53,675 bases of DNA from a virus. Both the position numbers and the translations under genes were made by a program. Where the stretch lies: positions 1-53,675 of the IMG/VR virus record IMGVR_UViG_3300009180_000052, one strand, 5' to 3'. Shown here piece after piece: positions 1 through 51,555 of this stretch. Within the stretch, counting starts at the first letter, position 1. Every line of letters starts with the position of its first letter. The notes beneath the pieces are model-generated. The model saw only the letters and a list, made by a program, of their open reading frames with translations, did no database searches and was not told the origin of the DNA.

Positions 1-3000
1 ATACCCATCTGCATAAGACATTACAGATGCTAATACTGAACTTGCAGCACCACTATTGTTTGCAGTTATTATACCACCTGCAGTTACACTACTAGAGAAT
101 GTAGCAGCACCTGTGGATGCTATGGTAAGAGCAGTAGTTGGGTTTGCACCATTGCCAATGCCAAATGTTATTTGACCATCAGTTAATCCAATTACCGAAC
201 TTCCATATCCTACATAATCTCTTGCAGTACCATTCCAATTGAATGATAATATTGAAGCATCTCCACTTGTTGGGACTCCAAATCTATGCTTTGCACCATT
301 CCAACCCGAAGGTGTCAATGAATAAGTTAAATTTGTTCCTGTACCTGTTGAAATATCTAATGCACCTGTTAAAGTTCCACCTGTTAATGGTAGGTAACCA
401 CTTAACGCACTTCCATAATTAGGAATATTCAATGTTGCACCTACCAATGTTGCAGCACCTGAAGTGCCTGTTGTTGTAAGACTAAGGGTGGCTTGTTTAT
501 TATTAAATGTACTCCAATCCGCACTTGATAATGCACCTCTATTTGTTGCACTTGCAGTTGGTACATTTAAAGTAATTACAGGAGTTGTAGTACTTGTTGC
601 AACTGTTGAACTTAAATCCGTTCCACTTGTTCCTATTGTTAAAGCAGCAACACTTGTAACTGTTCCTACACCACTACCACCTACTAATGCTATTGTTCCA
701 CTTGCATCAGGGAATGTAAATGTTCTATTAGCTGTTAATGTTGCTGAATTTAATAAAATAATATTAGTAGTACCAAAACTTATACCTAAAGCAGTATTTA
801 CTGCAAATAATGAAGTATAACCTGTACCCGTAAATCCTGCACTTGAATATTGTTTAAATTCTAATGCAATACCTGTAGCACCATTATCCGTAATAATATT
901 GTTAGTAAATGTCTTTGAACCTCCTATTGTTTGAGAGCCTGCTGTTATTAAACCTCTATTTGTAGATGATGCAGATGGTATATTTAAAGTTATAACAGGA
1001 GTTGTTGTACTATTAGCAACAGTACTTGTTACATCCGTTCCACTTGTTCCTATTGTTAAAGCAGCTACGCTTGTAACCGTTCCCACACCCGAACCGCCAA
1101 CTAAAGCCAATGTACCACTTGTATCAGGAAAAGTGTAAGTTCTATTTGCACTTAATGAAGAACCTGATAATATAGCTACTTTTGTACTGCCACCAAAATA
1201 TATACTTAAAGAATCAGTTGCTATTGATGTTAATGAAATATATCCAACCCCACTTATCGATGCAGATGTTGCAATTTCAATATTTAATGAATTAGCAGTG
1301 GTACTTGATTTATTAACTATTATACCTTTATTATATTGTAAATTAGAAGTTAAATTATAAACACCTAAATCAACATTTGCTGTAGCCCCTGTATATGGCA
1401 CGTAGCCTGTTAAAGCAGAACCATAATTAGGGATATTCAAAGTAGCACCTACTAAAGTTGCTGCTCCTGAAGTGCCTGTTGTTGTTAATGTTAAGGCGTT
1501 TTGTTTATTATTAAATGTTGTAAAATCAGTAAATGATACCCAACCACTAACAGTAGTTGATGCTTGATTAATATTAAAAACACCTGTTGTGTTATTATAT
1601 AATAATGGACCAATAACTGATAAAGAAGTTAAAGCAATATAGTTAGAACCATTTGTTATTTGGTTGTTGTTTGTGGGGATTGTTATAACACCTGTTGCAG
1701 AGTTGTAAGCACCGATACCTGCTGCAAATGATAAGGCTAATCTTGACCTTGTATCAGTATAATATAAATTTGTGACTCCTTCAGAAATATTGTCAGTAGT
1801 TAAACTAACAGCACCTGTCTGTCCGTTCACACTTATAACAGAATCTGTGTTATCAACCTTCTGCCATACGCCACCATTAAATATAGCCCAATCCCCCACT
1901 TGCCAATCAGTAATTCCATTAAGGTTTGTATTACCCGCAACTGAAACAATGTAGTAATATCCTTGCGTACCAACTGAACTTGTTAATGTAGGCGTGTTGG
2001 TAGATGCGTTCCACGTTCCTTGATATATTGACCCACCAATAAGTCCATTAATTTGATTCTGTAACTTACCAAATGCTGTAAGCATTGTGTCAGTAGCAAG
2101 CACTGTTCCTCCTGTGATATTAACACCGGTAAGAATCTTAGCTGTTACTGATGCGTTGTTTAATGTTACTGCTGTCGCTCCCGGACCCGTGCCCGTAGCC
2201 TCACCCGTAAGAGAGGTAATATAACTTCCCGCTGCTTGTTTATTATTAAAAGTAGTCCAATCAGTTGAACTTAAATATCCTGCCTGACTACCACTTGACT
2301 GTTGAATTGTAAGGTTTGGCGTAGACCCACCGCTTGAAAATAAAGGAGACGTAGCTGTAACTCCACCTACCTTAGTATTAAATGTGGACCAATCAGCAGC
2401 ACTTAAAGCACCACGATTAGCAGCACTTGCTGTAGGTACGTTTAATGTAATTACAGGAGTTGTTGTTCCTGTAGCTACAGATGAACTTAAATCAGTCCCT
2501 GTCGTTCCTAATGTTAATGCAGCTACCGATGTAACTGTACCAACACTCCAACTTCTATCTGCACTTAAGTCATAAGCAGTACCATTGATAGTCAATTGTC
2601 TACTTGTAGGTACATATCCACTTAAAGCAGACCCGTAATCAGGAATATTTAAAGTATTTGAAATTAATGTAGCTGCACCACTTGAACCCGTAGTTGTAAG
2701 AGTTATTGTTGCCTGCTTATTATTAAATGTATTCCAATCTGTTGAAGAAAGGTATCCATTAGTTGATGCTCCTGATTGACTAATGGTAAAGACACCCGTA
2801 GTGTTATTATATGACAATGGAGCCGTAGCACTAAGTGAACCCAATACAATATATGCACTTGAGTCAACACTACCATCAGCTTTTAAAAATTGACCTGATG
2901 TTCCGCCATTTTTAATTAAAGAAGCAGCCGTTAAATTATATATCCCTAAGTCAACATTCTGAGTTGCTCCCGTATAAGGCACGTATCCTGTTAAAGATGG

Positions 3001-5124
3001 AAATGTTTGAAGTGCTCCCGTTCCATCAATATATTGAAGTGTATTCCCCGACCCTGTAATAGCGATTGTGCCATTTGAAGTCAATGGTGAGTTTGCAACA
3101 CTAAACGCTGATGGCATACTTACCCCAACTGATGTTAGTCCCGTATCAATATCAGACCAACTTGCAGTAATTGTGCCACCATCTTGTTGGTTAAGTGTTA
3201 ATGTCTTTGTTGCTGTACCCGTAACTGCAGCACTTACAATTGAATCATTGTATGCTGTATTCCAATTAGCTGAGTTGTCAGTAATATATGAAATAACACC
3301 GGCAACAGATTTAACTAAACCCGTGCCGCCTAAAAATGGTTGCTTACCATTAAATGTGTTCCAATCAGTACTACTTAAATAACCATCTTGAGTAGTATTT
3401 GCTACTTGAATAGCAAATGCTCCTGTAGTATTGTTATAAGTTAACGGAGATGTCGCACTCAATGATACTAATGTAATATATCCTGCTCCATTTAATATCT
3501 GACTATTGTCAGTTGGTATTGTAATTACCCCTGTTGTACCATTGTACGCTCCTGAGCCTGCCGCAAATGAAAGTGCCGCTCTTGCTCTTGAGTCTAAGTA
3601 ATATAAATTTGTTGCTCCTTCCGGTATGTTGTCAGTCGTAAGACTTACCGCTCCAACTTGTCCATTGACAGAAGTAACTAAGTCTGTATTGTCTACTTTG
3701 TTCCACGTAGAGCCATTAAATATTGCCCAATCACCTACCTGCCAATCAGTAATACCATTTAAGTTAGTATTTCCTGCTACATCTACAATATAATAATATC
3801 CTTGCGTACCTACACTACTTACTAAAGCAGGTGTGTTAGTAGCTGCATTCCATACGCCTTGGAATTGAACACCGCCAATTAATCCATTGATTTGATTTTG
3901 TACTTTACCAAAAGCTGTTAAAATACTATCCGAAGAAGTTATTGCACTTCCTGTTATGCTTAATCCTGTTAAAAGTTTTCCTATTACAGCAGCATTACTA
4001 AGTATAACTGATGCTGCTCCCGGACCCGCACCTGTAGCTTCGCCTGTTAACGAAGTGATATAGTTGCCTGCCGGTTGCTTACTGTTAAATGTCAACCAAT
4101 CAGTACTTGATAGGTATCCATCTAAGCTACTGCTTGATTGTTGTATTGATATGTCAGGATTAACGCCTCCTGTTGAAGACAATGGAGTTGTCGCTGTAAC
4201 AGATGAAACACCTGTAGCAAGCGTCCAAGACCTATCTGCTGCTAAATTATAAGTAACACCATTAATCGTAAGCGTCCTTGTTAGTGGTACACCACCAAGC
4301 CCTGACAATGTATAGTTAGGAACATTAATTGTAGCCCCAACAAGAGTTGACGCTCCACTATTTCCCGTTGTTGTTAAACTTATAGCAGTTTGCTTGCCAT
4401 CAAATGTTATCCAATCAGCACTTGATAAATATCCATTCTGAGAAGCATTTGCTTGCTGAATACTAAATACGCCTGTGCCTGAGTTGTATAACAAAGGTGA
4501 CGTAGCACTATAAACAGGTAAATTTATCCATCTAACTCCCGTTACATTTGAAGATAATACCTGATTATTTGTTCCAACTGAACTTAGTCCATCTCTCAAC
4601 GTCCCAAGCAAAGTAAGGCTTGTAGAAATAGTAGATGTTAATAAAGCTGCGTTGTTAGCACTTAAGTTACCTGTTAATATTATATTATTTACAGCCGTAT
4701 TGCCCGATGTCAAAACTTGTTGTAAGTCAGGTATAACCGTTGGAATAGTGTACCACTCTACTTGAGTTCCGGTGCTTCTTAATATCTGACCGGCTGTTCC
4801 TACTGAGTTTAATCTATCGTATAAACCACCGGTAATATGAGTATCACCTGTTAAAAAACTATCTAAAATAGTTGCAGTATCTGTTACCTCAAGATATGTT
4901 GTAAATATTGTGCCATTCAAGATAATATCCTGAGTTGCGGTATTGCCAAAGTCCAATACTCCTTGTAATGTATTTCCCGGAATATTAGGGATGAACAAAT
5001 TCAATAACTCACTTAACGTAAAGTTGTATGTTATATCCTCGGGGTCTCCGCCCACGCTTGTACCTACTAACTTATCAGCTAATTTGGGTACAGGGACAAC
5101 TTCGTATATACTAATCTTTGACAT
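1..5124 (-). CDS. Giant repetitive tail fibre/tip protein, 3' end beyond the left edge
   Basis: An open frame runs from the ATG at 5124 to base 1 (1708 codons) without a stop, so the C-terminus is outside the window. The protein is rich in Ser, Thr, Gly and Asn and is built of recurring fibre units. One is a GYLSSTDWxTFNNKQ motif seen many times, another a GTVTSVAALTIGTSGTDLSS motif followed by TPVITLN. A larger block with TDWQVGDWAIFNG resembles carbohydrate-binding segments of phage fibres. The N-terminus (MSKISIYEVVPVPKLADKLV) is shared with the short gene just upstream and probably anchors the fibre to the virion. A role in host-surface binding is inferred from composition, repeats and position next to the lysis genes. 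Plus-strand frames inside it are shadows. Confidence 0.85.
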   Translation of the reverse strand, partial: MSKISIYEVVPVPKLADKLVGTSVGGDPEDITYNFTLSELLNLFIPNIPGNTLQGVLDFGNTATQDIILNGTIFTTYLEVTDTATILDSFLTGDTHITGGLYDRLNSVGTAGQILRSTGTQVEWYTIPTVIPDLQQVLTSGNTAVNNIILTGNLSANNAALLTSTISTSLTLLGTLRDGLSSVGTNNQVLSSNVTGVRWINLPVYSATSPLLYNSGTGVFSIQQANASQNGYLSSADWITFDGKQTAISLTTTGNSGASTLVGATINVPNYTLSGLGGVPLTRTLTINGVTYNLAADRSWTLATGVSSVTATTPLSSTGGVNPDISIQQSSSSLDGYLSSTDWLTFNSKQPAGNYITSLTGEATGAGPGAASVILSNAAVIGKLLTGLSITGSAITSSDSILTAFGKVQNQINGLIGGVQFQGVWNAATNTPALVSSVGTQGYYYIVDVAGNTNLNGITDWQVGDWAIFNGSTWNKVDNTDLVTSVNGQVGAVSLTTDNIPEGATNLYYLDSRARAALSFAAGSGAYNGTTGVITIPTDNSQILNGAGYITLVSLSATSPLTYNNTTGAFAIQVANTTQDGYLSSTDWNTFNGKQPFLGGTGLVKSVAGVISYITDNSANWNTAYNDSIVSAAVTGTATKTLTLNQQDGGTITASWSDIDTGLTSVGVSMPSAFSVANSPLTSNGTIAITGSGNTLQYIDGTGALQTFPSLTGYVPYTGATQNVDLGIYNLTAASLIKNGGTSGQFLKADGSVDSSAYIVLGSLSATAPLSYNNTTGVFTISQSGASTNGYLSSTDWNTFNNKQATITLTTTGSSGAATLISNTLNIPDYGSALSGYVPTSRQLTINGTAYDLSADRSWSVGTVTSVAALTLGTTGTDLSSSVATGTTTPVITLNVPTASAANRGALSAADWSTFNTKVGGVTATSPLFSSGGSTPNLTIQQSSGSQAGYLSSTDWTTFNNKQAAGSYITSLTGEATGTGPGATAVTLNNASVTAKILTGVNITGGTVLATDTMLTAFGKLQNQINGLIGGSIYQGTWNASTNTPTLTSSVGTQGYYYIVSVAGNTNLNGITDWQVGDWAIFNGGVWQKVDNTDSVISVNGQTGAVSLTTDNISEGVTNLYYTDTRSRLALSFAAGIGAYNSATGVITIPTNNNQITNGSNYIALTSLSVIGPLLYNNTTGVFNINQASTTVSGWVSFTDFTTFNNKQNALTLTTTGTSGAATLVGATLNIPNYGSALTGYVPYTGATANVDLGVYNLTSNLQYNKGIIVNKSSTTANSLNIEIATSASISGVGYISLTSIATDSLSIYFGGSTKVAILSGSSLSANRTYTFPDTSGTLALVGGSGVGTVTSVAALTIGTSGTDVTSTVANSTTTPVITLNIPSASSTNRGLITAGSQTIGGSKTFTNNIITDNGATGIALEFKQYSSAGFTGTGYTSLFAVNTALGISFGTTNIILLNSATLTANRTFTFPDASGTIALVGGSGVGTVTSVAALTIGTSGTDLSSTVATSTTTPVITLNVPTASATNRGALSSADWSTFNNKQATLSLTTTGTSGAATLVGATLNIPNYGSALSGYLPLTGGTLTGALDISTGTGTNLTYSLTPSGWNGAKHRFGVPTSGDASILSFNWNGTARDYVGYGSSVIGLTDGQITFGIGNGANPTTALTIASTGAATFSSSVTAGGIITANNSGAASSVLASVMSYADGY

Positions 5125-5137
5125 CCGCTATAAAATT

Positions 5138-5407
5138 TTAAACGTGAACTATCTTCAAAGCATCTCCTGTTCTGTAAATTTGTCCTACTGCCAAACCTCC
5201 GGCAACAGCAGCAGCATTATCTGCATAAATTGGGACACTTCCTATTATAATAGTTGAAGCACTAAAATTTGCGGAAAATAAATTTAATAGCTGCTGTAAC
5301 GTAAAATTATAAGTGACATCCGCAGGAACACCATCAATGCTTGTTCCTACAAGTTTGTCTGTTAGTTTTGGTACCGCAACAACACTATATGAATTAATTT
5401 TACTCAT
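5138..5407 (-). CDS. Short protein sharing the tail-fibre N-terminal anchor
   Basis: 89 residues. Residues 1 to about 50 (MSKINSYSVVAVPKLTDKLV, then a TYNFTLQQLLNLF segment) match the first 50 residues of the adjacent giant fibre at roughly two thirds identity. The remainder is different and ends in AGGLAVGQIYRTGDALKIV, a glycine-rich C-terminal motif seen at the end of many small phage structural proteins. It sits 13 nt upstream of the fibre gene and overlaps the preceding gene by 8 nt, so it is cotranscribed. It may be a minor fibre or adaptor that competes with or caps the same docking site. The function is inferred. Confidence 0.75.
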   Translation of the reverse strand: MSKINSYSVVAVPKLTDKLVGTSIDGVPADVTYNFTLQQLLNLFSANFSASTIIIGSVPIYADNAAAVAGGLAVGQIYRTGDALKIVHV

Positions 5408-5642
5408 TTTTTTCTTGTTCTTTTTGGGTTACTTCGCCCGTTTGCATATTAATTACTGAATCAGCACCATACTTCTCAATAAGAATCTTCTCATTGTTGG
5501 TAAAGGCTTCAACAATACTATGTGCTTGTTTGATTAACCCTTGTTTTTGTAATTCAAGTTCACCAAGACCTATTTTAATCTTAGTGTACTCTGCTGAACC
5601 TGTCTTAATAAAGTCTAATTCTTCTGCTGTTAAATTTGCCAT
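5400..5642 (-). CDS. Small helical phage protein
   Basis: 80 residues, charged and probably helical (LTAEELDFIKTGSAEYTKIK, then a region rich in Lys, Glu and Gln), with no signal peptide or membrane segment. It is the first gene after a clear TAnnTTTG promoter and has the leader ATCAAATCAAATGG. It overlaps the following short fibre-related gene, which suggests a role in tail or fibre assembly, such as a chaperone or structural linker. I do not recognise a named family. Confidence 0.7.
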   Translation of the reverse strand: MANLTAEELDFIKTGSAEYTKIKIGLGELELQKQGLIKQAHSIVEAFTNNEKILIEKYGADSVINMQTGEVTQKEQEKNE

Positions 5643-5665
5643 TTGATTTGATTTTTTAATTTATA

Positions 5666-5673
5666 CAAATATA
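5666..5673 (-). promoter_or_regulatory. Bacteroidota-type -7 box (TATATTTG)
   Basis: On the minus strand TATATTTG lies 23 nt upstream of the ATG at 5642, followed by TATAAATT and the AATCAAATCAAATGG leader. It matches the TAnnTTTG consensus of Bacteroidota. No clear -33 TTTG is visible. It should drive the fibre genes separately from the lysis cassette. Confidence 0.6.
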
Positions 5674-5687
5674 GTAAATAAAAATTA

Positions 5688-6143
5688 TCATTTTAGGAGA
5701 TACTTTCTGCCAAACCATATCCCTATTGGAATCAAAAGCAACCACAAAAACACAAAATAGTTTGCTTTTTTGTCGACCTTCTTCTCAAAACCTTTAGCCT
5801 TAATGTCCTTCTTGACGGAAATGGTATTCTCAGACGACTTAGATACAGTAGATTTTGAAGAATCTACTATGTGTCTTCGTGTTTTCTTAAGCCTAACTGT
5901 CGCATTGAAGTACTGCTTACCATCAATTACTAATGGCTTAGCTGTATCAATAGGGACTATCTCAATCTCATCAATGTCCTCTTTAATAGAAATAGCGTTC
6001 TGCTGTACAGAAACGCTATCCTTTTTTTCGACAGCCGTGCTGTCAATATGTGTCTCTACTTGTGTCTTGGTAACCATTACCTTCCTTGAGGCACAAGAGA
6101 ATAGTAAGAAACTAAGTAATATTAGTATAAGATGTTTTACCAT
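5688..6143 (-). CDS. Unimolecular spanin (u-spanin)
   Basis: 151 residues with the bipartite layout of a u-spanin. An N-terminal lipoprotein signal has a lipobox ending LLFSC at residue 17, and a C-terminal transmembrane segment lies at about residues 128-147 (FVFLWLLLIPIGIWFG). The middle is periplasmic and rich in Ser, Lys and Val with beta and coiled-coil character. Such proteins tether outer and inner membranes and fuse them in the last step of lysis of Gram-negative hosts. It overlaps the upstream endolysin by 32 nt, the expected position in a lysis cassette. The leader is AATCAAATCAAATGG. Confidence 0.85.
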   Translation of the reverse strand: MVKHLILILLSFLLFSCASRKVMVTKTQVETHIDSTAVEKKDSVSVQQNAISIKEDIDEIEIVPIDTAKPLVIDGKQYFNATVRLKKTRRHIVDSSKSTVSKSSENTISVKKDIKAKGFEKKVDKKANYFVFLWLLLIPIGIWFGRKYLLK

Positions 6144-21209: not shown

Positions 21210-21854
21210 ATGGAAAAGAAACTTCCGGTTTTTGAAAGGCTATCCGCCATCAACGTCAATGAGCACGTTGAAAAGAAAAGCAATCTAACTTATTTATCTT
21301 GGGCTTGGGCTTGGTCAAAAACAAAGACCGAGTGTCCTGATGCCACGTACAAAATCTTAGAGACTGAGTATGACGAGGCTCTTGGATTTATGTGCCACAC
21401 TAATGTAACCATCGAGGGCGAGACGCTTGAGATGTGGTTGCCGGTGATGGATGGTGCGAACAAGTCAATGAAGAAGATAGCGTATAGTTATAGCTCACGC
21501 TATGGCGATAAGCAAGTTGATTCTGCGACTACGTTCGACATTAACAAAACCATTATGCGTTGCTTAGTTAAGAACTTAGCGATGTTTGGGTTGGGGATTT
21601 ATATCTATGCCGGTGAGGATTTACCTGAGGGAGAGACACACTATAAGGCTGAGGCTCCTAAGAAGACAGCAGTTGCAACAGCAGATGGGTTGACTGACTT
21701 AAAGAAGGGTACTGACAATTGGGATGCGGTAATCAAGTACGTAACAGCTAACAAGTCTTTAGGTATTGAGAAGATTGGAGCACAAATTACACGCAAGTAC
21801 AAGGTGAGCCCTACATTAAAGAAAGAAATTGCTAACCTAATAACAGCATCGTAA
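21210..21854 (+). CDS. Single-strand annealing protein, DUF1071/Sak3-like
   Basis: 214 residues. FERLSAINVNEHVEKKSNLT followed by YLSWAWAWSKTKTECPDATY is the N-terminal signature of DUF1071 (Sak3) annealing proteins, with the KxLTYLSWAxAW motif. Later WLPVMDGANKSMKK and the FDINKTIMRCLVKNLAMFGL region also match. It anneals complementary strands in phage recombination. The stop overlaps the start of the PDDEXK exonuclease (TAATG), the classical recombinase-exonuclease pair. The leader TCAAATCAAATCAAATGG supports the start. Confidence 0.85.
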   Translation: MEKKLPVFERLSAINVNEHVEKKSNLTYLSWAWAWSKTKTECPDATYKILETEYDEALGFMCHTNVTIEGETLEMWLPVMDGANKSMKKIAYSYSSRYGDKQVDSATTFDINKTIMRCLVKNLAMFGLGIYIYAGEDLPEGETHYKAEAPKKTAVATADGLTDLKKGTDNWDAVIKYVTANKSLGIEKIGAQITRKYKVSPTLKKEIANLITAS

Positions 21855-29546: not shown

Positions 29547-32500
29547 TTAATTTTTACCAAATTTACTTGTTCCAAATCCACCTTTACTTTTACTTTGCGT
29601 TCCACCAAATCCTGAAGAGCCAAATCCTTTTTTAGATTTAGGAGTATAGTCATACATCTCATCTTTCATTGCTCTCTCCAAGCTATCTTTTGTTTTCTTA
29701 ATAGCTTTTTCTGCTTGCTTTGCATCAAAGTCAACAGCGTCAGGTCCGAATGTTCTATACCAAAGGTCGTAATCATAACGTTTCATATCCTCTTGGTTTT
29801 TAAATCCTTGAAGTTTTTCAGATTCAACTTTCTTTTTATCTCCTTTAGTCTTCTCAGCTTTCTCAAGGTCTTTATACATATCTTTCATTACAGCCTTACG
29901 AATATCTTTATACAAAGGAATAAGACCTGCATTACCTAATACCTCAAGAGGAACCCTTACCTTAAGTTCTCTTTCACTCCTCGCAATAGCTTCTTCTTGT
30001 ACTTTTTCTTTCTCTGTTGCTTTTTTAAAGATAAGAGCAGCAGTATTTAATGCAGGTGTATAAGAACCTCCCATATTCATAAGCAGTTTACCTAAATCTG
30101 TTTGTCTGCTATCGTCTCTTGGTATTAATGTATAAGCAATACCGTCTTTATACGGGTCATATTCTCCCTCTCTTAAAAAATCAAGGTATTTTTCATTTGC
30201 TTCTTCTATTCCATAGTTTAATACATTTTTAATAGCATTACCAAAGTCTCTTCCAATCAACAATGAACTAAATGCAGAAGCGAATGCTTGACCAAGTTTC
30301 TGCATAAATGACTTTTCTGTTTCAGGCTCATCATCATCAAAGAATAATCCCATAAGACCTGTGCCCATCATTTGAAGAACTAATCCATACAAAACCATAC
30401 GTGTTGCAACCGCTCCAAGAACAGCACCACCTTGTTCCTTAGTCAGTGAACCGTTACCAACCGCTGCATTAATAGCTGTACGTGCTGTAACGTATTCAAA
30501 TATCAAGAACTTTGTCATAAAGTTATTGAAGTTATTAAATGCTTTTAATGAAGAACTTTGGTCAGGCTTTACAGTTCCCTTTAAGATTCCCATAAATGGA
30601 TTGTCTGTAGCTCCAACCATTACAGACCTTTCATCTGCAAGCTCGGTAGCTTTATCAAGAGCCTCTTTATTTTCTTCCATATATGCCTCATCATTTGCTG
30701 CAATCTTATCAAAGTCAACTTCTTTGCCTGTTATATTTAAAAATTGATTAGCAAATGCTCCAAACCACATAGGTCTCATAGTAACCTTATCCGGTGTAGA
30801 TATTAAAGCATCAGCCTGAAGCTCAACTGCATTAACATATTTCTTACCGGATAAGTTATAAATCTGCTGAATTTTATTTTTTACAGGATTTTTTGATACA
30901 GCACCTCTAATACCGCTTGCTTGACCTAATATTGATGTATCGACTAATCTTCCTGATAATGTATCTGTAGGGAATATTCTATTAGTTTGTTTACTTTTTA
31001 AGTTCTCCATTATCATAGGAGCATCAGAAGACATAATAACACCTCTGTATTTTACACCTGTAGCAAGTGCTTTAGGGTCACTAATTACTGCAAAGCCAAT
31101 GTTTGAACTTAACTCAGATATAAACCTACTTGTTCCTGCAAGTACTGCACGGTATCCTTGTCTGCTTATATAATCAGAAGCTATATCAAAAAATGAATCT
31201 TGAGTAAATGTATTTGTCAATAATCCTTCAATAGTTTCTTCAAATGCAGCATTGATAGCATTTATTATTTGTCTTTTTTCTTTAGGCACTCTTCCTTTGC
31301 TTTCTAAATTAGCAATGGTGCCATTGATTGTCTTACGAGCTGTACGTATTGGTCTTGTTAAATTGTAATCCATCAATACAAACTTAGCACCACGCTGAGC
31401 ACTTGCAAATACGTCAAAGTTCAATGGAGATACTTTACCTGTTCTCGCTATCAAAGACTTTGCTTTAGTAGATGGTCTCATCGCATTGTTATACTCAGTT
31501 ACAAACGCACTGCCTGATGTTAAATCATTTGGCTGATACTCGTGTAATACATTCAAGTGCACATAGTTATTCAATGGGTCAATCCTATCACCACGAATAA
31601 TAGCTGCAGTAAATTCAGCCTTCTCTCTTAGTGATTCGTTTATACCACGAATATCTTTAATGGCATCTTTCTCAGCTTGATTAAATGAATTATACAATTT
31701 TTCGTTGTCAATGTTGCCATCAGGAGCAAATTCATTAAGTATTTTTTGCAGCATTTCTGCGTCACGTTCTCCAAATCGAGACTTGCCTGCGTCAATATGC
31801 TTGATGGTAGCTTTTAAATACTCAGATGCAGGATTTACTTCTTTATTCCCTTTGTTAGATTCAAATTCAAGCTGAACCATATAGGTCATCATCTTAAACT
31901 TAGACATTGTTGTCTTATTTGGGTCAAGTTTAAATGACTTTGAAACTTTTTGCTCTGCTTTCTCTAATATGTTTTGAACTCTATTTAATTGATTTTTAAA
32001 TATAGCAACAGCTTTTGCAGGCTCATTGAATAATGAATTAAATATTTCTTTCGTTTTAAAGTTTCCAAATAATTGGTCAATATAAAATAAAGGGTTTCTT
32101 CTAATCATTTCTAACACACCTGTTCTTCCTTGCATTGCAACTGCAGCTTTTACTTTTGAATACAACTGAGAAAACTTATACATCTTGCCTTTCTCAACAG
32201 CGTTAGTTAAAACCTTATCATTATTAATTCCATCTAACTTCTCTAACATTATTTCTCCGTAGTGAGGTAAGTAGTTATTGTTAATGTTATCAATAACTTT
32301 AAGCAGGTTTTTTAATTCAGTATTGGTTAAGCCATCTACTGCGTCAGTACCAATAAGTCTGCTTAATTCTTTTACTGTATCTCTTTCATCTTTAGTAGAA
32401 AGACCGGAGCCATCAATAGTAGATTTTTTTACTGCATCAGTTAGTTCTTTTCTTTCTGTCGCTAATTCATCTTCAGTAAGTTCAGTCTCTTCAACCTGAG

Positions 32501-35500
32501 GAGCAATGTCCTCTTTATATTTACGCATAGTCTCTGCTTCCTTCTCGTCAATCTCTTTACCGTCAAGCATTTTTTTAATTGATGCTGCGTAGTCTAACTC
32601 GTCATCTTTAAATACTTTATTCTCAGAAGCATTGAATCTATCAGCTAACTCATCAGCTTTTGACTGCTCGTTGTCAATCTCATCAAGAATTGCTTGAACA
32701 TCTTTAGTCACTGCAGACTTCTCGTCAAGCGTAAGCACTGCTTGTCTTGCACCAAACATATCAACTAATTCTAAGTAACGACCAAGATATTCATTAGGTA
32801 TAAGTGTTGGGTTCATCGAAAATAATTGATTTAATTTTCCAACTAAACCATCAGCAATACCAATCTTTGTAACAATATTTTTCTTAGCCATCTTTAATTT
32901 ACTCTTAGCTACGTCAATCTTATCAGCATACTCTGCGTTTGCAAATACTTTAGCCATATAGTCAACAAAGTTTGACACTGAAATCTCATTAAGCATATTT
33001 ACTTTGCCAAATCTTGATACAATATTAGCGGCTTGGATTGATGTAATCTTTCCTTTTGATGCCATTTCTCTAATATCCTTAGCTAATTCCTTAGCTGCAT
33101 CTCTTGATAAGTCTCTAATTTGCTTGATGACAAGCATCTTTTCTTCTCTTGATATATTGGTAATATCTTTTAATGCACCAAGTACACGCCCAATTGACAC
33201 GGCACGCTTGGCACTAACTCCCATTTTAAGCCTACTCTCACGCTCCATTATCTTTTTCTGTGCATCATTACTCTCTTTATAAATATCTGAGTTTCTAATA
33301 AACGTATCTAAGTTAGATACTATCTTAGCGTCAGCTATATTTCTTGATTTTTGACGTGCAATTAACTCATCAGCCTTTACCATTAATGCATCATACTGAG
33401 ATTGAATAGGAGAAATTTGACTAATGGCATTGATACCATCAATTACATCACGACTATTTACATTATTATCTTTGGCGACTCTTTTAATTGCATCTTGCAA
33501 TACAACACCTGCATCAACCAATACCTTAATTGCCTTAATGATGGTCTTCATTATGGGCAATGCTATATTTACACCAAGATTTTCTTTTTCAAACTTGTCA
33601 ATATCCTTAATTACTTGGTCAAGGCTGTTTGAGATTTTCTTTAATGTAGTTTTATCGTTAGGGTCTAATGCAAGTAAATCATCTAATGCACCTGTTACTT
33701 GTTCTTCCACTGTAGGCTGAGCCTTTGCTTTAGCTTTAGCTTTTTTAGCTTCAACTTTAGCTTTTTCTTTAGCTTGCTTCTTTTGCTCTTTATCAAATTC
33801 TTTCTTCTGAATTTTATTATTCTTGTCAGCAAGTGCTTGCTTGGCTTCTCCTAATGTCTCAAATCCATCAAAATTAATCTCATTACCATCAATATCTGTT
33901 GCAGTAAATGAGAATATTTTATCTTCATCAGTAAGTTTCGTTATTGTTCCAATAGGTTCACCATCTATATTACGTGCTTCAACGGTAAGTGATGAGATAT
34001 ATGTTACAGTTCTTCCGCTATCAGTGTCTTTTTCATCTTCAATATAGTCTATTGCGTTGTCTTTTGTAAACGCATCATTCTTAACATCAGACACTTTCAT
34101 AGGAACAAACTGCTCTTCTTCTATCATAAGTACAGCTTCAGCTTGAACAGGTTTATAATCTATTAAAGATTGTGGAGCCTTACCATTATTGCCTACGTCC
34201 CATTGTGATTTATCAGCAGCATCTACATTATTTTTAAATGCTTCTACATCATTCATAAATGATTCAGCAAGTGTAGACTTTGGATTGGTAAATCCATCGT
34301 AGTATAAGTCGCTTAATCTTGCAGCCTCATCTCTTAAAGTATCATCTACATTGGTATCTCTTTGAATCTCGTAAAAATAATGACCAAGCCCATCAGGGAT
34401 ATTCCATCCAAGACGAGCACGTACTGCATCTAATTTTTGTTTGGCTGTAGCTTTTTGTTTTTCATTTCCGGTAAATCCTTTGATACCATCCTTAGCCAAG
34501 TAGGCTTCATTGGTAATCACTTGAATTTCTGCAATCGTACCATTAGATGTACGAATCTCAATAAGTCTTTTTGGATAACCTAAGTCTGTAGTCTCGGTAA
34601 TTCTTCTTACTCCTGTATCACCCGGATACTTCTTGTCAATAATTTTAAATACTTTGTCAGCATTAGCGTCAGTATCTACTACTATATTTACACGTGAGCC
34701 ATCACCAAGTTTTTCGGTAAATGCATTATACCACCTGATAGCTTTAACAGATGCACGCTCGGCACGTTTGATTGGGAATGGAGATATGGATGCATCAACT
34801 TTAGAGATAGCATCTTGAGCGATACCCTCTACCTCAGCCTTAGCGTCTTCGTAAAGTTTTTTATTTGCCTCAAATGTACGTTGTACAACGGGCTGTACCT
34901 TTTTAATTAAATCGTTAAATCTAGTTTGGTCTTCAGGAGATAATTTTTTGCCTTCTTTTTGTAAGTCTATTTCTTTTTGACGTAAGTCAGCAAGTTCAAC
35001 TGCAAGTGTTTCTACTTTTGTGGTTGATTCTTGGAACGCTTTAAGAACGTCACTCCTATCGTATTGTCTTGTTTGGTCATCGGTGCCTTCATTGGTTGCT
35101 CCTTGGTAAGAAGATTTCTTGATGCGAATGTCGAGCGAGCCATTTCCATTGCTTCCGAATACGGAAAAGACAGCGTTTTCTGTTGATTCAAGTCTTGATT
35201 TGTAATCTCTTTTTCGTTCTTCATATTGTTCATCTTTAGTTAAATTAATATCTTGGTCTTGCGTAAAAATTACTGATACCTGAAGTTCATTATTATTTAT
35301 ATTAAATGCACTAATACCATTGTTTTCTAACTCTACAGACAGGTCTGACAATTGTTCGTCAGTTATTGGTTCAGCAAATGTATAAATAATTTGTGGATAA
35401 TTAGTTAATCCATTACTATCTTTTTCAGAAAGAGGTGTATTTATTTTGCCATCAACCCATTCATCGTGCAACTCTGATTCAGTTTCTAATATAAATGCAT

Positions 35501-37955
35501 CTTGAGAATACTTCTCTGCAAAGTCAAATAATAAATCGCTTAACTTTTTAGTATCAGCCTGAGGACTAACTGACAAAGTCATATTGAACGATGGTTCAAA
35601 CTTCTTATCCCATAAACCACGCTTAGTATCTTTAAACTGAACAGCCACACCATCCACTTGTGCAACTGAGTCGATAATCTCCTGCTTGGTATCATTTAAT
35701 ATTTGAGTCTCCGCAGTTTTTATTTTAGCAAGAACTTTAGGGTCTTTCTTTTTAGCGTATTGCTTAACAAGTTTATCATAGTTCAATGACAACTTCTTAA
35801 TCCTTTCAGTAATTGGACTAAATCCACGCACTGTAGCCGGAGTAATAAGGGCAGAGACGTCTCTAACAAACTTAGGTGCTTGTGTCTTTGAAGACACTTG
35901 CTGTGATTGTTTCCATTTCTTAAACCCTTCTATATCTGCTTTATTACCTAAGATATGAATTTGTTCGCTATTTGGTACTGAATATATCTTTTCCCCACCC
36001 ATTACCTCACTTGTTGTTCCATCTACTCCTTCATTCAAAACAAATCCTTCTCCTAAATTATTTACATTAAGAATAACCGGATATAAATTTTCTCCATATT
36101 GAACGTTATCTTTTGTTTTAGAAAAATCAAAAAGATTACCTGTTTCTTTATTTCTTTTGGTATCATCAAACTCTTCAAACTTTTCATTGCTTCTATGATA
36201 TACTATGTCTTTTACTTTGCTATTTGGAAATATAGATTTAAGATAATTTGCATATTCTTGTTCAGTTCCTATATCTGATAAATTATTATTAGTATTGTGA
36301 ACCTCTTTAATTGGTGGCGTTACTTCTTGCGTCCCACTTTCAGGAGCGACTTCTTGGGTCCCTGTGGCAGCGACTTCAAGTCCTTGGTCTCCTTCGACCA
36401 CTTGCTGCAATCCCACTTCGGGTTGTTCTGTGCGTAGCACGCTTTCATCTGTTGTTTGTTCTTGAATGGCATCTTGTTCTGTTTTAATTGGTTTACCAAT
36501 AACTTTATATGTAGTAGGTTTATATGGGTCTTCAGGCTCTACCTCTTCAACTGAAAACTCAATCTTTTTATATGTACTTGAAAGGTTTTTAATTATACCT
36601 TCTGCTTGTTCTTTAGTTATATCATCCTGTGCAAGTTCAAGATTCCCGTCAGTAGATTCCATAAAATTATACTCTGCACTACCATAAGCTAAAGTCCTTG
36701 GCTTAGATTGCTCAAGAATATTAATAGTTTCTACAAACTTTTTATTGTTAGAATCTACTTGCTCTACTTTCCCTTTTACATCTTGTATTGACTTATCTAA
36801 CTGCTCTTTTTCCTCTGTTGTTGTAGCCCTTGCTCTTCTTCCTAATAAAGCCGTAAGCACACCATTCATTATTGCACCAACAGTTCCGCCAACTGCAGAA
36901 GCGTTACCAACACCGTCAAGTATTTCTTTTGTCGTACCATAAATTTGATTGGCACTTACATTCTCATATATATTCTGAATACCTTCAGTGATGGCTTCTT
37001 CGGAACCGCCAATAACCGCTCTTTTTAAAATTTCAACTCCTTTATTCCCTACCAACGCCCTGTCTAATCTCTTAAACAACCCGTCTACAGGAAGCATTTC
37101 TATTGGGTAGGAAACCAACGCATTTTGAATAGCATAAGTTAATGCTTCATTTTCTGTAGCCCCTTCATTTTTAGCTTGCTCATAAGATGGTGCAGCTACT
37201 TGAGAAATTGTTAACGCACCTTGAGGCGTAGCCATTCTTGATGCCAACCCCTTACCATAGTTTATAACTGACTCAAGTTTTGTTCCTTTCTTTGCTGCAG
37301 CCATAGCTACTGTTTTGGCTCCTCCTGCTGTAAATCCTGATAGAATAATTGGAACCATTTCACCAATAGCCTTTGCAGTTTGTCCCCAAAAACCACTTGA
37401 AATATCTTTATCCGTTGGGATTACTTCATCTAATAATTTTTTGTATTCTTGAGCACCCTTGTATATGGTAAACTTTGAAGCATCGGACTCTTCTACTGCT
37501 CCCGTCTTGGCTATTAAATTTTTTATTCCTGCAGTTGCTATTGATGCTGTTTCTAAAACATCTGCAGGGAATTTAACCGCACCCTTTCCTGCCGTCTTAA
37601 GTAAATCTCCTACAATATACCCAACGCCCTTACCTTCAAACTCGTCTGCGGGCTTATATTCTTTTGTTCTTTGCAAACCCGTCATCCCCATTGGACCAAC
37701 AATAACTGTTTCAGTAGGTTTTTGTGAAGCCAAAGAACCATTTGCCAAAGGAGATTCCGTACCGACTTTTTTTTTACCAACTAAAGATGAAAAGTCATCA
37801 GGCGTTTTTTGGTAACCTTTTTCTTTTACGTATGAATACATATCGTTAAAGACTTCATTATCGCTATGAAGTAACTGAACAAACTCTCCTTTACTTTTTG
37901 CATAACCTTTTGAGACTGCTCTACTATATAAGTCATCAATTACTTGTTCGTCCAT
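29547..37955 (-). CDS. Giant polyvalent/ejected virion protein with ART-like and RelA/SpoT-like segments
   Basis: 2802 residues. The first 60 residues hold two copies of a short motif (LYSRAVSKGYAKSKGEFVQL and MYSYVKEKGYQKTPDDFSSL). Residues about 555-675 resemble the ART domain of polyvalent proteins (VYHRSNEKFEEF, YPVILNVNNLGEG). Residues about 1060-1200 resemble a RelA/SpoT-type nucleotidyltransferase (IKRAERASVKAIRWYN, then TIAEIQVITNE and GHYFYEIQRD). A Lys/Ala-rich stretch follows near 1390. The second half is helical with one strongly hydrophobic patch near 2515-2535. Such proteins travel in the virion and enter the cell with the DNA. Position beside internal virion proteins supports this; enzyme activities are inferred. 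Confidence 0.72.
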   Translation of the reverse strand: MDEQVIDDLYSRAVSKGYAKSKGEFVQLLHSDNEVFNDMYSYVKEKGYQKTPDDFSSLVGKKKVGTESPLANGSLASQKPTETVIVGPMGMTGLQRTKEYKPADEFEGKGVGYIVGDLLKTAGKGAVKFPADVLETASIATAGIKNLIAKTGAVEESDASKFTIYKGAQEYKKLLDEVIPTDKDISSGFWGQTAKAIGEMVPIILSGFTAGGAKTVAMAAAKKGTKLESVINYGKGLASRMATPQGALTISQVAAPSYEQAKNEGATENEALTYAIQNALVSYPIEMLPVDGLFKRLDRALVGNKGVEILKRAVIGGSEEAITEGIQNIYENVSANQIYGTTKEILDGVGNASAVGGTVGAIMNGVLTALLGRRARATTTEEKEQLDKSIQDVKGKVEQVDSNNKKFVETINILEQSKPRTLAYGSAEYNFMESTDGNLELAQDDITKEQAEGIIKNLSSTYKKIEFSVEEVEPEDPYKPTTYKVIGKPIKTEQDAIQEQTTDESVLRTEQPEVGLQQVVEGDQGLEVAATGTQEVAPESGTQEVTPPIKEVHNTNNNLSDIGTEQEYANYLKSIFPNSKVKDIVYHRSNEKFEEFDDTKRNKETGNLFDFSKTKDNVQYGENLYPVILNVNNLGEGFVLNEGVDGTTSEVMGGEKIYSVPNSEQIHILGNKADIEGFKKWKQSQQVSSKTQAPKFVRDVSALITPATVRGFSPITERIKKLSLNYDKLVKQYAKKKDPKVLAKIKTAETQILNDTKQEIIDSVAQVDGVAVQFKDTKRGLWDKKFEPSFNMTLSVSPQADTKKLSDLLFDFAEKYSQDAFILETESELHDEWVDGKINTPLSEKDSNGLTNYPQIIYTFAEPITDEQLSDLSVELENNGISAFNINNNELQVSVIFTQDQDINLTKDEQYEERKRDYKSRLESTENAVFSVFGSNGNGSLDIRIKKSSYQGATNEGTDDQTRQYDRSDVLKAFQESTTKVETLAVELADLRQKEIDLQKEGKKLSPEDQTRFNDLIKKVQPVVQRTFEANKKLYEDAKAEVEGIAQDAISKVDASISPFPIKRAERASVKAIRWYNAFTEKLGDGSRVNIVVDTDANADKVFKIIDKKYPGDTGVRRITETTDLGYPKRLIEIRTSNGTIAEIQVITNEAYLAKDGIKGFTGNEKQKATAKQKLDAVRARLGWNIPDGLGHYFYEIQRDTNVDDTLRDEAARLSDLYYDGFTNPKSTLAESFMNDVEAFKNNVDAADKSQWDVGNNGKAPQSLIDYKPVQAEAVLMIEEEQFVPMKVSDVKNDAFTKDNAIDYIEDEKDTDSGRTVTYISSLTVEARNIDGEPIGTITKLTDEDKIFSFTATDIDGNEINFDGFETLGEAKQALADKNNKIQKKEFDKEQKKQAKEKAKVEAKKAKAKAKAQPTVEEQVTGALDDLLALDPNDKTTLKKISNSLDQVIKDIDKFEKENLGVNIALPIMKTIIKAIKVLVDAGVVLQDAIKRVAKDNNVNSRDVIDGINAISQISPIQSQYDALMVKADELIARQKSRNIADAKIVSNLDTFIRNSDIYKESNDAQKKIMERESRLKMGVSAKRAVSIGRVLGALKDITNISREEKMLVIKQIRDLSRDAAKELAKDIREMASKGKITSIQAANIVSRFGKVNMLNEISVSNFVDYMAKVFANAEYADKIDVAKSKLKMAKKNIVTKIGIADGLVGKLNQLFSMNPTLIPNEYLGRYLELVDMFGARQAVLTLDEKSAVTKDVQAILDEIDNEQSKADELADRFNASENKVFKDDELDYAASIKKMLDGKEIDEKEAETMRKYKEDIAPQVEETELTEDELATERKELTDAVKKSTIDGSGLSTKDERDTVKELSRLIGTDAVDGLTNTELKNLLKVIDNINNNYLPHYGEIMLEKLDGINNDKVLTNAVEKGKMYKFSQLYSKVKAAVAMQGRTGVLEMIRRNPLFYIDQLFGNFKTKEIFNSLFNEPAKAVAIFKNQLNRVQNILEKAEQKVSKSFKLDPNKTTMSKFKMMTYMVQLEFESNKGNKEVNPASEYLKATIKHIDAGKSRFGERDAEMLQKILNEFAPDGNIDNEKLYNSFNQAEKDAIKDIRGINESLREKAEFTAAIIRGDRIDPLNNYVHLNVLHEYQPNDLTSGSAFVTEYNNAMRPSTKAKSLIARTGKVSPLNFDVFASAQRGAKFVLMDYNLTRPIRTARKTINGTIANLESKGRVPKEKRQIINAINAAFEETIEGLLTNTFTQDSFFDIASDYISRQGYRAVLAGTSRFISELSSNIGFAVISDPKALATGVKYRGVIMSSDAPMIMENLKSKQTNRIFPTDTLSGRLVDTSILGQASGIRGAVSKNPVKNKIQQIYNLSGKKYVNAVELQADALISTPDKVTMRPMWFGAFANQFLNITGKEVDFDKIAANDEAYMEENKEALDKATELADERSVMVGATDNPFMGILKGTVKPDQSSSLKAFNNFNNFMTKFLIFEYVTARTAINAAVGNGSLTKEQGGAVLGAVATRMVLYGLVLQMMGTGLMGLFFDDDEPETEKSFMQKLGQAFASAFSSLLIGRDFGNAIKNVLNYGIEEANEKYLDFLREGEYDPYKDGIAYTLIPRDDSRQTDLGKLLMNMGGSYTPALNTAALIFKKATEKEKVQEEAIARSERELKVRVPLEVLGNAGLIPLYKDIRKAVMKDMYKDLEKAEKTKGDKKKVESEKLQGFKNQEDMKRYDYDLWYRTFGPDAVDFDAKQAEKAIKKTKDSLERAMKDEMYDYTPKSKKGFGSSGFGGTQSKSKGGFGTSKFGKN
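35882..35897. repeat. 16-nt palindrome GTGTCTTYRAAGACAC, copy 8 (inside the giant virion gene)
   Basis: GTGTCTTTGAAGACAC. Here the coding strand reads VSSKT, a different frame from the VFEDT copies, which shows that the DNA or RNA element rather than a peptide is conserved. Confidence 0.88.
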
Positions 37956-50136: not shown

Positions 50137-51555
50137 TTATCCATAACGGAATAACACGAAGTTGTTAGCACCCAAGGTACATACGCAACGCTCAGAAAGG
50201 AAGTTAACCTCCATTGCATCTAAGTCGCTTGTAGCGGCACCACCGGCAGAACCTGTAATCCAAGTCTTGTATCTGCGGTCTTCAGCTTCAGAAGCACGGT
50301 AACGAACGTGTAAGAAAGGACGCTTAGCATTCTTTCCCATTATTTGGTCGTACACTGAAGTAGAACCTGCAGGAACCATTAAACCTGTAATAGTACCGGT
50401 TGCAGTTGCAGCAGCACTGCTTAAACCACCACGCATTGTTGGGTCATTTAAGTATTTCCAATCAGACTTGTAGAAATCATAACCTCTACGGAATCCTGTG
50501 AAACCTAAATTTAACGCCATATCAACATCGTTATCGAAAAGACCGTATGAAGCTGATTGAGAAGCACTACCTGCGGTATAGCCATTCAATTGAGCCAACA
50601 TATTGTCAATATCGAAACTCAATCCACGATTTACGAATACTACGTTCTCTTCGATAGCACCTTGCTTATCTAAACGAGAAACGATAGAATCCCAATCAGA
50701 TAAAGTTGTTGGAGTACCACCACCCCAAACGTTACCACGATTGTTTACAACGTAGAAAATACCTTGAGAACCAATAAAGCCTGCAGTTGCAGCACCTGAA
50801 GCAGATGCAGCGGGAACAGCTTCAATCATTGAAGTCTCTAAGTAATCTTCAAAACGTAAACGAGTCTCGTGCTCTGATTTCAAATACCACAAGTAACCTG
50901 TAGCACCGTTCTCAGTAGTAACTTCAACCCAACCGATTTGAGCCATATCTGAACCATTAACCGCATACTTATCTTTAATGATAATAGGGTTGTTGCTGTA
51001 GATATCATCTTCTGATTCTAATGAACCAACCATTCCGTTAGTTCCTTTCTTAAACTCAGAACCATAAATGAATACGGTACAAGCTGTAGAAACAGCGAAT
51101 GCTTGACCTGCAGTCTCGTAGTAAGCTACTGTGAAAGTAGTTGCTGAAGGAACTGCAGTTACGATAGCCTTGTTGAAAACACCTGTTGAGTTGTTTTGAA
51201 TCATCAACGTTTGTCCAACACGAATAGCGATATAAGTCACACCACTATCAGCCACAGTAAAAGTAGCTGTTGAAGCTGCTGCTGCTGCTGCTGAAGTACA
51301 ACTTGTGTACTTAATGTGTAAACGTCCTTGTTCTGCCCATTTGATTTGGTCAGAATTAGAAGGCATCTCTGCTCCTACCATACGTAAGAAAGATGCGATT
51401 GTTCTATTACCATAACGCTCAAATTCTTTCTCATAAGTATCAGGAAGATACTGATTTAAGAAGTCGAAGTTGGTAATGTAGTTTGTTTGTAAGGCTACCT
51501 GTTCTGCAGAAGGCTGCAGGGCGAAGGTAGGGTTACTTAAAAGTGCACTTGCCAT
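50137..51555 (-). CDS. Major capsid protein
   Basis: 472 residues. LQTNYITNFDFLNQYLPDTY, YEKEFERYGNRTIASFLRMV and GRLHIKYTSC are typical of HK97-fold capsid proteins of crAss-like and related short-tailed phages. Residues about 85-170 are an Ala/Thr/Val-rich inserted beta domain (ATFTVADSGVTYIAIRVGQT). The C-terminus FLSERCVCTLGANNFVLFRY is conserved in the group. It is preceded by scaffold and portal genes and followed by a strong terminator, as expected for a highly expressed product. Confidence 0.85.
   Translation of the reverse strand: MASALLSNPTFALQPSAEQVALQTNYITNFDFLNQYLPDTYEKEFERYGNRTIASFLRMVGAEMPSNSDQIKWAEQGRLHIKYTSCTSAAAAAASTATFTVADSGVTYIAIRVGQTLMIQNNSTGVFNKAIVTAVPSATTFTVAYYETAGQAFAVSTACTVFIYGSEFKKGTNGMVGSLESEDDIYSNNPIIIKDKYAVNGSDMAQIGWVEVTTENGATGYLWYLKSEHETRLRFEDYLETSMIEAVPAASASGAATAGFIGSQGIFYVVNNRGNVWGGGTPTTLSDWDSIVSRLDKQGAIEENVVFVNRGLSFDIDNMLAQLNGYTAGSASQSASYGLFDNDVDMALNLGFTGFRRGYDFYKSDWKYLNDPTMRGGLSSAAATATGTITGLMVPAGSTSVYDQIMGKNAKRPFLHVRYRASEAEDRRYKTWITGSAGGAATSDLDAMEVNFLSERCVCTLGANNFVLFRYG

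What the first reader, a model, noticed from the sequence alone, without database searches (positions are those of the whole stretch)
1..5407. Short protein with the same N-terminal anchor as the giant fibre
About 50 N-terminal residues are shared between the 89-residue product at 5138-5407 and the >1700-residue fibre, while the rest differs. Both start MSKI and keep VPKL.DKLVGTS and TYNFTL..LLNLF. This could give two alternative occupants of one docking site, a capping peptide or a donor for fibre exchange by recombination.
Basis: seen in the sequence. Interest (0 to 1): 0.55.

Follow-up and report, generated by a model that had tools for sequence, protein, structure and literature searches.

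The report
Shaftless mini-fibre paired with giant fibre
Next to its giant tail fibre gene this phage keeps a tiny second gene whose protein has the same mounting end as the fibre but, instead of a long shaft, only a short end piece that also finishes fibre-like proteins in other phages and in bacteria, so it is probably a small second occupant of the fibre's mounting sites.

Summary
The 89-aa product (5138-5407, minus strand) and the fibre (1-5124, cut by the contig end) share their first ~50 residues (34/53 identical, E 8e-20). The pair is no local accident: 39 of 39 viral loci found with the fibre anchor alone carry the short gene 11-16 nt upstream, and it is under purifying selection (dN/dS ~0.2). 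The cap sits on unrelated anchors in other phages, often beside a longer fibre with the matching anchor, and ends fibre-like proteins in Bacteroidota genomes. Best reading: a shaftless mini-fibre (anchor plus end cap) that docks on the same kind of site as the giant fibre. Recombination donor is not supported: the two anchor sets do not mix and show no gene conversion. Not shown: presence in virions, trimerisation, docking partner. AlphaFold models were poor, the cap is not detectably a T4 foldon, and some capped proteins lie beside giant fibres without a matching anchor. New variant of the known theme of paired receptor-binding proteins.

The parts
5138..5407 (-). short gene, 89 aa: anchor + linker + C-terminal cap
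   Evidence: 39 of 39 relatives found by the fibre anchor carry it upstream of the fibre; dN/dS 0.20
5264..5407 (-). anchor of the short protein, residues 1-48
   Evidence: 34/53 identity to the fibre N-terminus
5141..5236 (-). C-terminal cap, residues 58-89 (VPIYADNAAAVAGGLAVGQIYRTGDALKIVHV)
   Evidence: profile match to the C-terminus of unrelated short proteins, 32 columns, probability 99.3%, E 2.2e-20; C-terminus of fibre-like proteins in bacterial contigs
1..5124 (-). giant tail fibre, N-terminal 1708 codons, runs off the contig
   Evidence: PHROG tail families phrog_31460 and phrog_13892; four relatives chosen for S74-like C-termini carry Peptidase_S74
4981..5124 (-). anchor of the giant fibre, residues 1-48
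5125..5137 (.). 13-nt gap between short gene and fibre; in relatives 11-16 nt and all three frame offsets, so no conserved frameshift fusion
5400..5642 (-). 80-aa ORF directly upstream, overlapping the short gene by 8 nt; part of the conserved neighbourhood
   Evidence: a loose motif of this ORF found within 400 nt upstream in 38 of 39 relatives

Best explanation
The short gene encodes a shaftless mini-fibre. Its first ~48 residues are the same mounting domain as on the giant fibre; its last ~32 residues are a C-terminal end cap that also ends fibre-like proteins elsewhere; between them is only a ~10-residue linker. Both proteins are made in tandem from one gene cluster and dock on the same kind of tail site. 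The giant fibre does the long-range host contact; the mini-fibre fills other sites as a plug or short-range tip. Shown: shared anchor, module make-up, conserved pairing, selection, lack of exchange. Inferred: docking in the virion, that the cap closes or trimerises the protein, and the plug or short-tip role.
For: Shared anchor E 8e-20. Short gene directly upstream in 39 of 39 loci recovered with the fibre anchor alone. Exactly two anchor copies, one short and one long frame and no third, in 15 of 16 long records (nearly all chosen because a locus with cap or pair was known there). dN/dS 0.20 whole, 0.23 anchor, 0.18 cap. The cap is shared with an otherwise unrelated short-protein family (99.3%), whose anchor profile matches that of the fibres beside it (96.3%, E 2e-9), while anchors A and B are unrelated (0.4%). 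Cap-ended ORFs with a neighbour over 100 aa whose N-terminus matches: A 32 of 38, B 18 of 32, C 4 of 4, other 1 of 15 (weak), against 13 of 614 other adjacent ORF pairs. In two of the A cases without adjacent match (L232, L241 has none over 100 aa adjacent) a 1398- or 1247-aa fibre with the anchor lies upstream with two or three ORFs between. The anchor carries 649/898-aa proteins in L023/L024. In cultured Flavobacterium phage elemoF a 157-aa and a 398-aa protein with this anchor type lie in tandem. The partner is upstream instead of downstream in L133, L232 and L241, against a leader-peptide role.
Against: No virion proteomics for any phage with this short gene is known to me or was found. 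In the cultured relatives elemoF and phi38:1 the co-anchored proteins are not annotated as structural proteins (phi38:1 gp087 is 'putative tail protein' by similarity). In the parts searched of Maribacter phage Panino and Cellulophaga phi18:3 I found no such pair (best anchor hits E 0.55 and 0.34). AlphaFold2 models are poor (mean pLDDT 43.9 and 44.3). The cap has no detectable relation to the T4 foldon or to a solved structure. In family B, 14 of 32 capped proteins with a neighbour gave no N-terminal match, and 8 of these 14 lie directly before a 905-2329-aa protein with another N-terminus (MNVLP.IL.YG..G): there a large neighbour does not share the anchor. In family A, L245 shows no anchored partner in the 14 kb held. 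In family C the cap ends 710-765-aa proteins, so the cap does not by itself mark a shaftless protein. Four relatives have only one anchored protein.
Confidence: 0.52

Rival explanations
1. The short protein is itself a short-range receptor-binding protein: the cap is the binding tip, and giant fibre and mini-fibre act at two stages of adsorption, like long and short tail fibres.
For: Some co-anchored partners carry a small extra domain (elemoF gp34; family B middle part, which matches the end of a tail-protein family, phrog_25268).
Against: The cap is strongly conserved across anchors and on bacterial fibre-like proteins, whereas receptor-binding tips usually vary; it is under purifying selection.
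Confidence: 0.2
2. The short protein is an assembly factor or adaptor: it loads the site or gives a second docking place for another protein, like the truncated anchor proteins of some Klebsiella phages.
For: Anchor-only truncated receptor-binding proteins are modelled in KP32 and KP34 relatives (PMC6872550, passages read). The short gene lies just before the fibre in 39 of 39 loci. Eight family-B capped proteins lie before giant proteins with another N-terminus.
Against: In that system the second protein docks by a different, shorter peptide; here both carry the same anchor. No Pfam match other than S74 reached its cut-off on four related fibres.
Confidence: 0.17
3. Spare anchor for fibre exchange by recombination (donor cassette).
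For: Shared sequence at the same end of neighbouring genes; the short anchors of the window's subgroup lie nearest the fibre clade in the tree (98/86).
Against: Fibre anchors of the 31 pairs form one clade; no own-pair excess in protein or third-position identity; in 4300-5700 no direct repeat of 16 bases or more and only weak inverted repeats.
Confidence: 0.04
4. Decaying duplicate or leader peptide without own function.
For: Small size and position just upstream of the fibre.
Against: Length 87-89 codons and cap intact in 39 of 39 loci, dN/dS 0.2, variable frame offset, reversed order in L133, L232 and L241.
Confidence: 0.03

Closest known systems
Dual receptor-binding proteins of podoviruses, anchor-branch systems (E. 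coli G7C; Klebsiella KP32 and KP34 groups; PMC6872550)
   Same: Two tail proteins per phage, one of which may be reduced to little more than its anchor.
   Different: There the second protein hangs on the first through a short peptide of its own; here both share one ~48-residue anchor, and the reduced one carries a conserved end cap.
Fibre genes with a common N-terminus in cultured flavobacterial podoviruses (elemoF gp34/gp33; Cellulophaga phi38:1 gp085/gp087)
   Same: Same anchor type and two proteins per phage; adjacent in elemoF, one gene apart in phi38:1 (gp085 by eye only).
   Different: Their partners are 157-976 aa; no cap was seen on them. In phi38:1 a T4-type foldon follows the anchor of gp085.
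T4 fibritin (wac): anchor plus C-terminal foldon
   Same: Idea of a short protein with an N-terminal mount and a small C-terminal module (role of the T4 foldon recalled).
   Different: Cap and foldon are not detectably related (profile probability 0.2%).
Cap-ended fibre-like proteins of Bacteroidota genomes (e.g. Chryseobacterium lathyri, Epilithonimonas hungarica, Spirosoma validum)
   Same: Same C-terminal cap, in several after NVGIGTT..SKLQV shaft repeats.
   Different: Signal-peptide-like N-termini (by eye), no phage anchor seen, mostly full-length shafts.

Membership tests
Anchor-branch dual receptor-binding proteins (G7C, KP32) | two tail proteins encoded together | tested here: met
   39 of 39 loci carry both genes; that both are tail proteins is inferred
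Anchor-branch dual receptor-binding proteins (G7C, KP32) | first protein has a T4gp10-like docking domain | tested here: inconclusive
   Pfam on four related fibres: no gp10-like domain, only Peptidase_S74 above its cut-off; the paper used HHPred, not available here
Anchor-branch dual receptor-binding proteins (G7C, KP32) | second protein attaches by a distinct conserved peptide instead of the anchor | tested here: not met
   both carry the same anchor, 34/53 identical
Fibritin / foldon proteins | C-terminal module homologous to the T4 foldon | tested here: not met
   profile comparison with the phi38:1 foldon probability 0.2%; PDB profile search without relevant hit
Fibritin / foldon proteins | C-terminal module holds three chains together | not testable with these tools
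   no multimer prediction; monomer models poor
S74-type trimeric tail fibre (giant protein) | C-terminal Peptidase_S74 chaperone | tested here: inconclusive
   the window's fibre is cut by the contig end; present in four of four related fibres given to Pfam, which I chose for S74-like C-termini; by eye several other complete relatives end otherwise
Fibre-exchange cassette | crossover repeats and mixing of variants among relatives | tested here: not met
   window 4300-5700: no direct repeat of 16 bases or more, weak inverted repeats only; no mixing or conversion

The most novel reading that the evidence does not exclude
Bacteroidota-type phages use a general two-protein mounting system: a constant mini-fibre (anchor plus universal end cap) and a fast-changing long fibre compete for the same tail sites, and their ratio sets how many long fibres a virion carries. 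The system has been built on at least three anchors (A and B unrelated by profile, C not compared), each time joining the local fibre anchor to the same cap, which also ends bacterial fibre-like proteins.
Probability: 0.2. Interest if true: 0.7.

Novelty: new variant of a known kind. Interest (0 to 1): 0.5.

Why it matters
Paired receptor-binding proteins are known, but a strictly conserved partner reduced to mount plus end cap, repeated on unrelated mounts, is a different design. If the two compete for sites, phage fibre number would be set by a second gene, which gene removal and virion proteomics can test. The cap is an unannotated module (no Pfam match for the short protein; only weak PHROG matches) that links phage fibres with bacterial fibre-like proteins and would help annotate at least 304 viral contig stretches.

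Tried and rejected
AlphaFold2 of short A (A2, 18 rows) and short B (A4, 19 rows) gave mean pLDDT 43.9 and 44.3. In the weak models the cap has a short helix in both, followed by a hairpin only in short A.

Cap as a T4 foldon relative: suggested by eye, not supported by profile comparison or by the PDB profile search (three weak partial hits to unrelated proteins). PDB profile searches with whole short A and short B found nothing relevant.

tblastn of P0001, of a 31-aa consensus of the cap and of the family-C anchor in cultured phage records found nothing. The family-B protein matched in ten records, by its middle part in nine and by its cap only in EBPR podovirus 1.

Leader peptide, frameshift fusion, decayed duplicate and recombination donor were considered and rejected or marked down. 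My first automatic count of short genes gave 32 of 39 because the pattern was too strict; the seven others (L063, L066, L070, L082, L085, L096, L097) show the ORF in the same output, and a looser pattern gave 39 of 39.

In the small clusters one pairing (a 58-aa protein, L219) rests on a 7-residue match and is not counted as support. In the control one pair (L264) itself involves a cap-ended fibre and several are spurious frames, so 13 of 614 is an upper figure; its smallest ORF was 60 aa against 45 in the test.

Literature: seven searches (two of them returned nothing). Of PMC6872550 I saw passages, of PMC13288928 passages; all other papers were seen only in listings. I found no description of the short gene or the cap in these searches, which cover open-licence PMC papers only.

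Full report
What is there. On the minus strand the genes run: an 80-aa ORF (5642-5400), the 89-aa short gene (5407-5138, overlapping it by 8 nt), a 13-nt gap, then the fibre (5124 to beyond base 1). BLASTP finds 34/53 identities over residues 1-53, E 8e-20, and nothing significant after that. The window is a 53,675-base virus record. Its ORF at 50137-51555 (a virion structural protein by PHROGs; the matching gene is annotated structural / major capsid protein in Cellulophaga phage Calle_1) matches 85 records: 68 Flavobacterium, 15 Cellulophaga, 1 Maribacter phage and one environmental genome (MW202828, Podoviridae sp., 67.7% identity). A portal family match fits. So this is a podovirus-like phage, probably of Bacteroidota.

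The rest of the short protein is not random. A scan with P0001 gave 57 viral loci. In 22 (L001-L022) nearly the whole short protein is matched. In L023 and L024 only the anchor is matched, on 649- and 898-aa proteins. In L026-L057 only the C-terminal part is matched, and in L025 (residues 10-89, 43%) the protein belongs with them. That C-terminal piece, here called the cap, mostly ends ~130-aa proteins with a different N-terminus (family B). Profile comparison of short A with short B aligns only the cap: 32 columns, probability 99.3%, E 2.2e-20.

The pairing is conserved. Using the first 70 residues of the fibre alone as query I recovered 39 loci. In 39 of 39 a gene of 87-89 codons, counted from the MxKI start, with anchor and cap lies 11-16 nt upstream; they make 31 distinct pairs. 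All three frame offsets occur (17, 13, 9), so a conserved frameshift fusion is excluded; a loose motif of the 80-aa ORF lies upstream in 38 of 39. Of 16 long records searched with an anchor profile, 15 have exactly two copies (one frame of 89-107 aa, one of 313-2851 aa) and one, a family-C record (L265), has one; most of these records were chosen because a pair was known there, so the new fact is the absence of a third copy. Each of 8 records searched has one cap.

Exceptions. In L023, L024, L136 and MW202828 an anchored protein of 544 (cut) to 898 aa stands with no capped short gene directly before it. In L023 and L024 its anchor resembles the short type by eye. In L133 the order is swapped: a 1230-aa fibre, then the short gene. 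In its relatives L232 and L241 the anchored fibre (1398 and 1247 aa) also lies upstream, with two or three ORFs between; in L249 an anchored 237-aa ORF lies 5.7 kb upstream; in L245 no anchored partner was seen in 14 kb; L222 starts inside a fibre-like ORF. These cases argue that the anchor can mount a full protein and that the short gene is not a leader.

Selection and history. For 32 short/fibre pairs including the window's, dN/dS of the short gene is 0.20 (326 of 496 comparisons with usable dS), 0.23 for the anchor, 0.32 for the linker and 0.18 for the cap; for the first 70 fibre codons it is 0.08 (166 comparisons). In a tree of 67 anchor rows the fibre anchors of the 31 pairs form one clade (100/98) and no short anchor falls inside it. 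Only 48 columns were available, the root is by midpoint, the L133 pair lies outside with MW202828, and the short anchors of the window's own subgroup lie closest to the fibre clade (98/86). The short anchor of a phage is no nearer to its own fibre (0.555) than to another's (0.553; 25% of 2000 permutations as high), and third positions at conserved codons agree (0.488 and 0.487). There is no sign of gene conversion or exchange.

The same plan on other anchors. In family B the short protein's N-terminus (MRTAAICPTCA..) matches that of the giant fibre that follows it in many loci (MSVICAANPCP..): profile probability 96.3%, E 2e-9. Anchors A and B are not related (0.4%). In family C (MAIKFSQF.. 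or MANIKFSQF..) a 710-765-aa protein that ends in the cap lies beside another fibre with the same anchor. Of 106 distinct cap-ended ORFs from the viral loci (19 N-terminal clusters), 89 have a neighbour over 100 aa within 60 nt. The neighbour's N-terminus matches in 32 of 38 in A (43 ORFs), 18 of 32 in B (40 ORFs), 4 of 4 in C and 1 of 15 of the rest (a weak 7-residue match); 55 of 89 in all. Among 614 other adjacent ORF pairs in the same loci 13 did so. Against the plan: of the 14 family-B cases without a match, 8 lie directly before a 905-2329-aa protein with another N-terminus. Very small cap proteins with yet other N-termini exist: 58, 60 and 64 aa in L219, L280 and L279 and 63 aa, gp23 of EBPR podovirus 1.

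The cap outside phages. A genome scan with the cap profile gave 25 loci. I examined 24 (L187 left out as a second C. lathyri locus); 19 of 24 have an ATG ORF that ends in the cap, one of them (L197) in a shortened cap; in 4 no ATG ORF was found and in L188 the frame runs on. Many start like secreted proteins (by eye; no signal-peptide tool was run) and several carry NVGIGTT..SKLQV repeats just before the cap. Named strains include Chryseobacterium lathyri, C. culicis, C. jejuense, Epilithonimonas hungarica and Spirosoma validum. The cap therefore looks like a general C-terminal module of fibre-like proteins.

Cultured relatives. I read parts of five phage records (24-50 kb each; one, MW202828, is an environmental genome). 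In Flavobacterium phage elemoF, gp34 (157 aa) and gp33 (398 aa) lie in tandem with this anchor type (HMM E 1.6e-17 and 1.7e-16; the HMM was built with these two included). In Cellulophaga phi38:1, gp087 (443 aa) matches the anchor at E 6.5e-4 and gp085 (976 aa) only by eye (E 8.2). In gp085 the anchor is followed directly by a T4-type foldon (E about 1e-4 to fibritin entries). MW202828 has one anchored protein. Maribacter phage Panino and Cellulophaga phi18:3 gave no significant anchor. So two co-anchored proteins occur in part of this wider group, and in the window's lineage one of the pair is reduced to anchor plus cap.

How it most likely works. The anchor mounts both proteins on the same kind of tail site; the cap closes the short one. 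The giant protein is a tail fibre: PHROG tail families, and four related fibres chosen for such C-termini carry an S74 chaperone. The mini-fibre then either plugs spare sites or gives a short tip. Docking, trimerisation and presence in virions are inference. The structure predictions were too poor to help, the cap found no relative in the PDB and is not detectably a foldon.

Comparison. The nearest described theme is the pair of receptor-binding proteins in podoviruses such as G7C and KP32, including versions in which one protein is truncated to its anchor (PMC6872550, passages). There the second protein hangs on the first by another peptide, while here both use one anchor and the small one has a conserved end cap. 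I therefore call this a new variant of a known kind. In seven literature searches I found no description of it. After the final recount I lowered the main confidence from 0.55 to 0.52 and the novel case from 0.22 to 0.20, and raised the adaptor rival from 0.15 to 0.17, because of the eight family-B neighbours without the anchor.

Noticed in passing
L202:22185-25115 (Cellulophaga phage phi38:1 gp085): Fibre in which a T4-type foldon (residues 49-71) follows the N-terminal anchor directly, i.e. a trimerisation module at the mounting end.
   Followed up: partly
L175-L199 (e.g. L186 Chryseobacterium lathyri, L184 Epilithonimonas hungarica, L192 Spirosoma validum): Secreted-looking bacterial fibre-like proteins end in the same cap as the phage proteins; L179 (Omnitrophota MAG) has three in tandem.
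   Followed up: partly
L223, L225-L227, L237, L238, L244, L257: Family-B capped proteins directly before 905-2329-aa proteins that start MNVLP.IL.YG..G and do not share the anchor.
   Followed up: no
L058:5902-6093 (EBPR podovirus 1 gp23): 63-aa protein: short N-terminus, glycine run, then the cap.
   Followed up: no
L048:13237-16090: Three tandem proteins with similar N-termini (MAIPSRQIGWST..LLWQISKQLERLT in the first two) that then diverge, another co-anchored set.
   Followed up: no
window 21428-21628: 201 bases about 75% identical to the Sak-like single-strand annealing gene of Lactococcus phages, a distant match for a Bacteroidota-type phage.
   Followed up: no
window 1-5124, fibre residues ~392-515 and a later copy: The fibre holds an internal duplication of a ~110-residue module; PHROG families match it in two stretches.
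   Followed up: no
window 29547-37955: 2802-aa protein on the minus strand with only one strong family match, of unknown function (phrog_32588).
   Followed up: no
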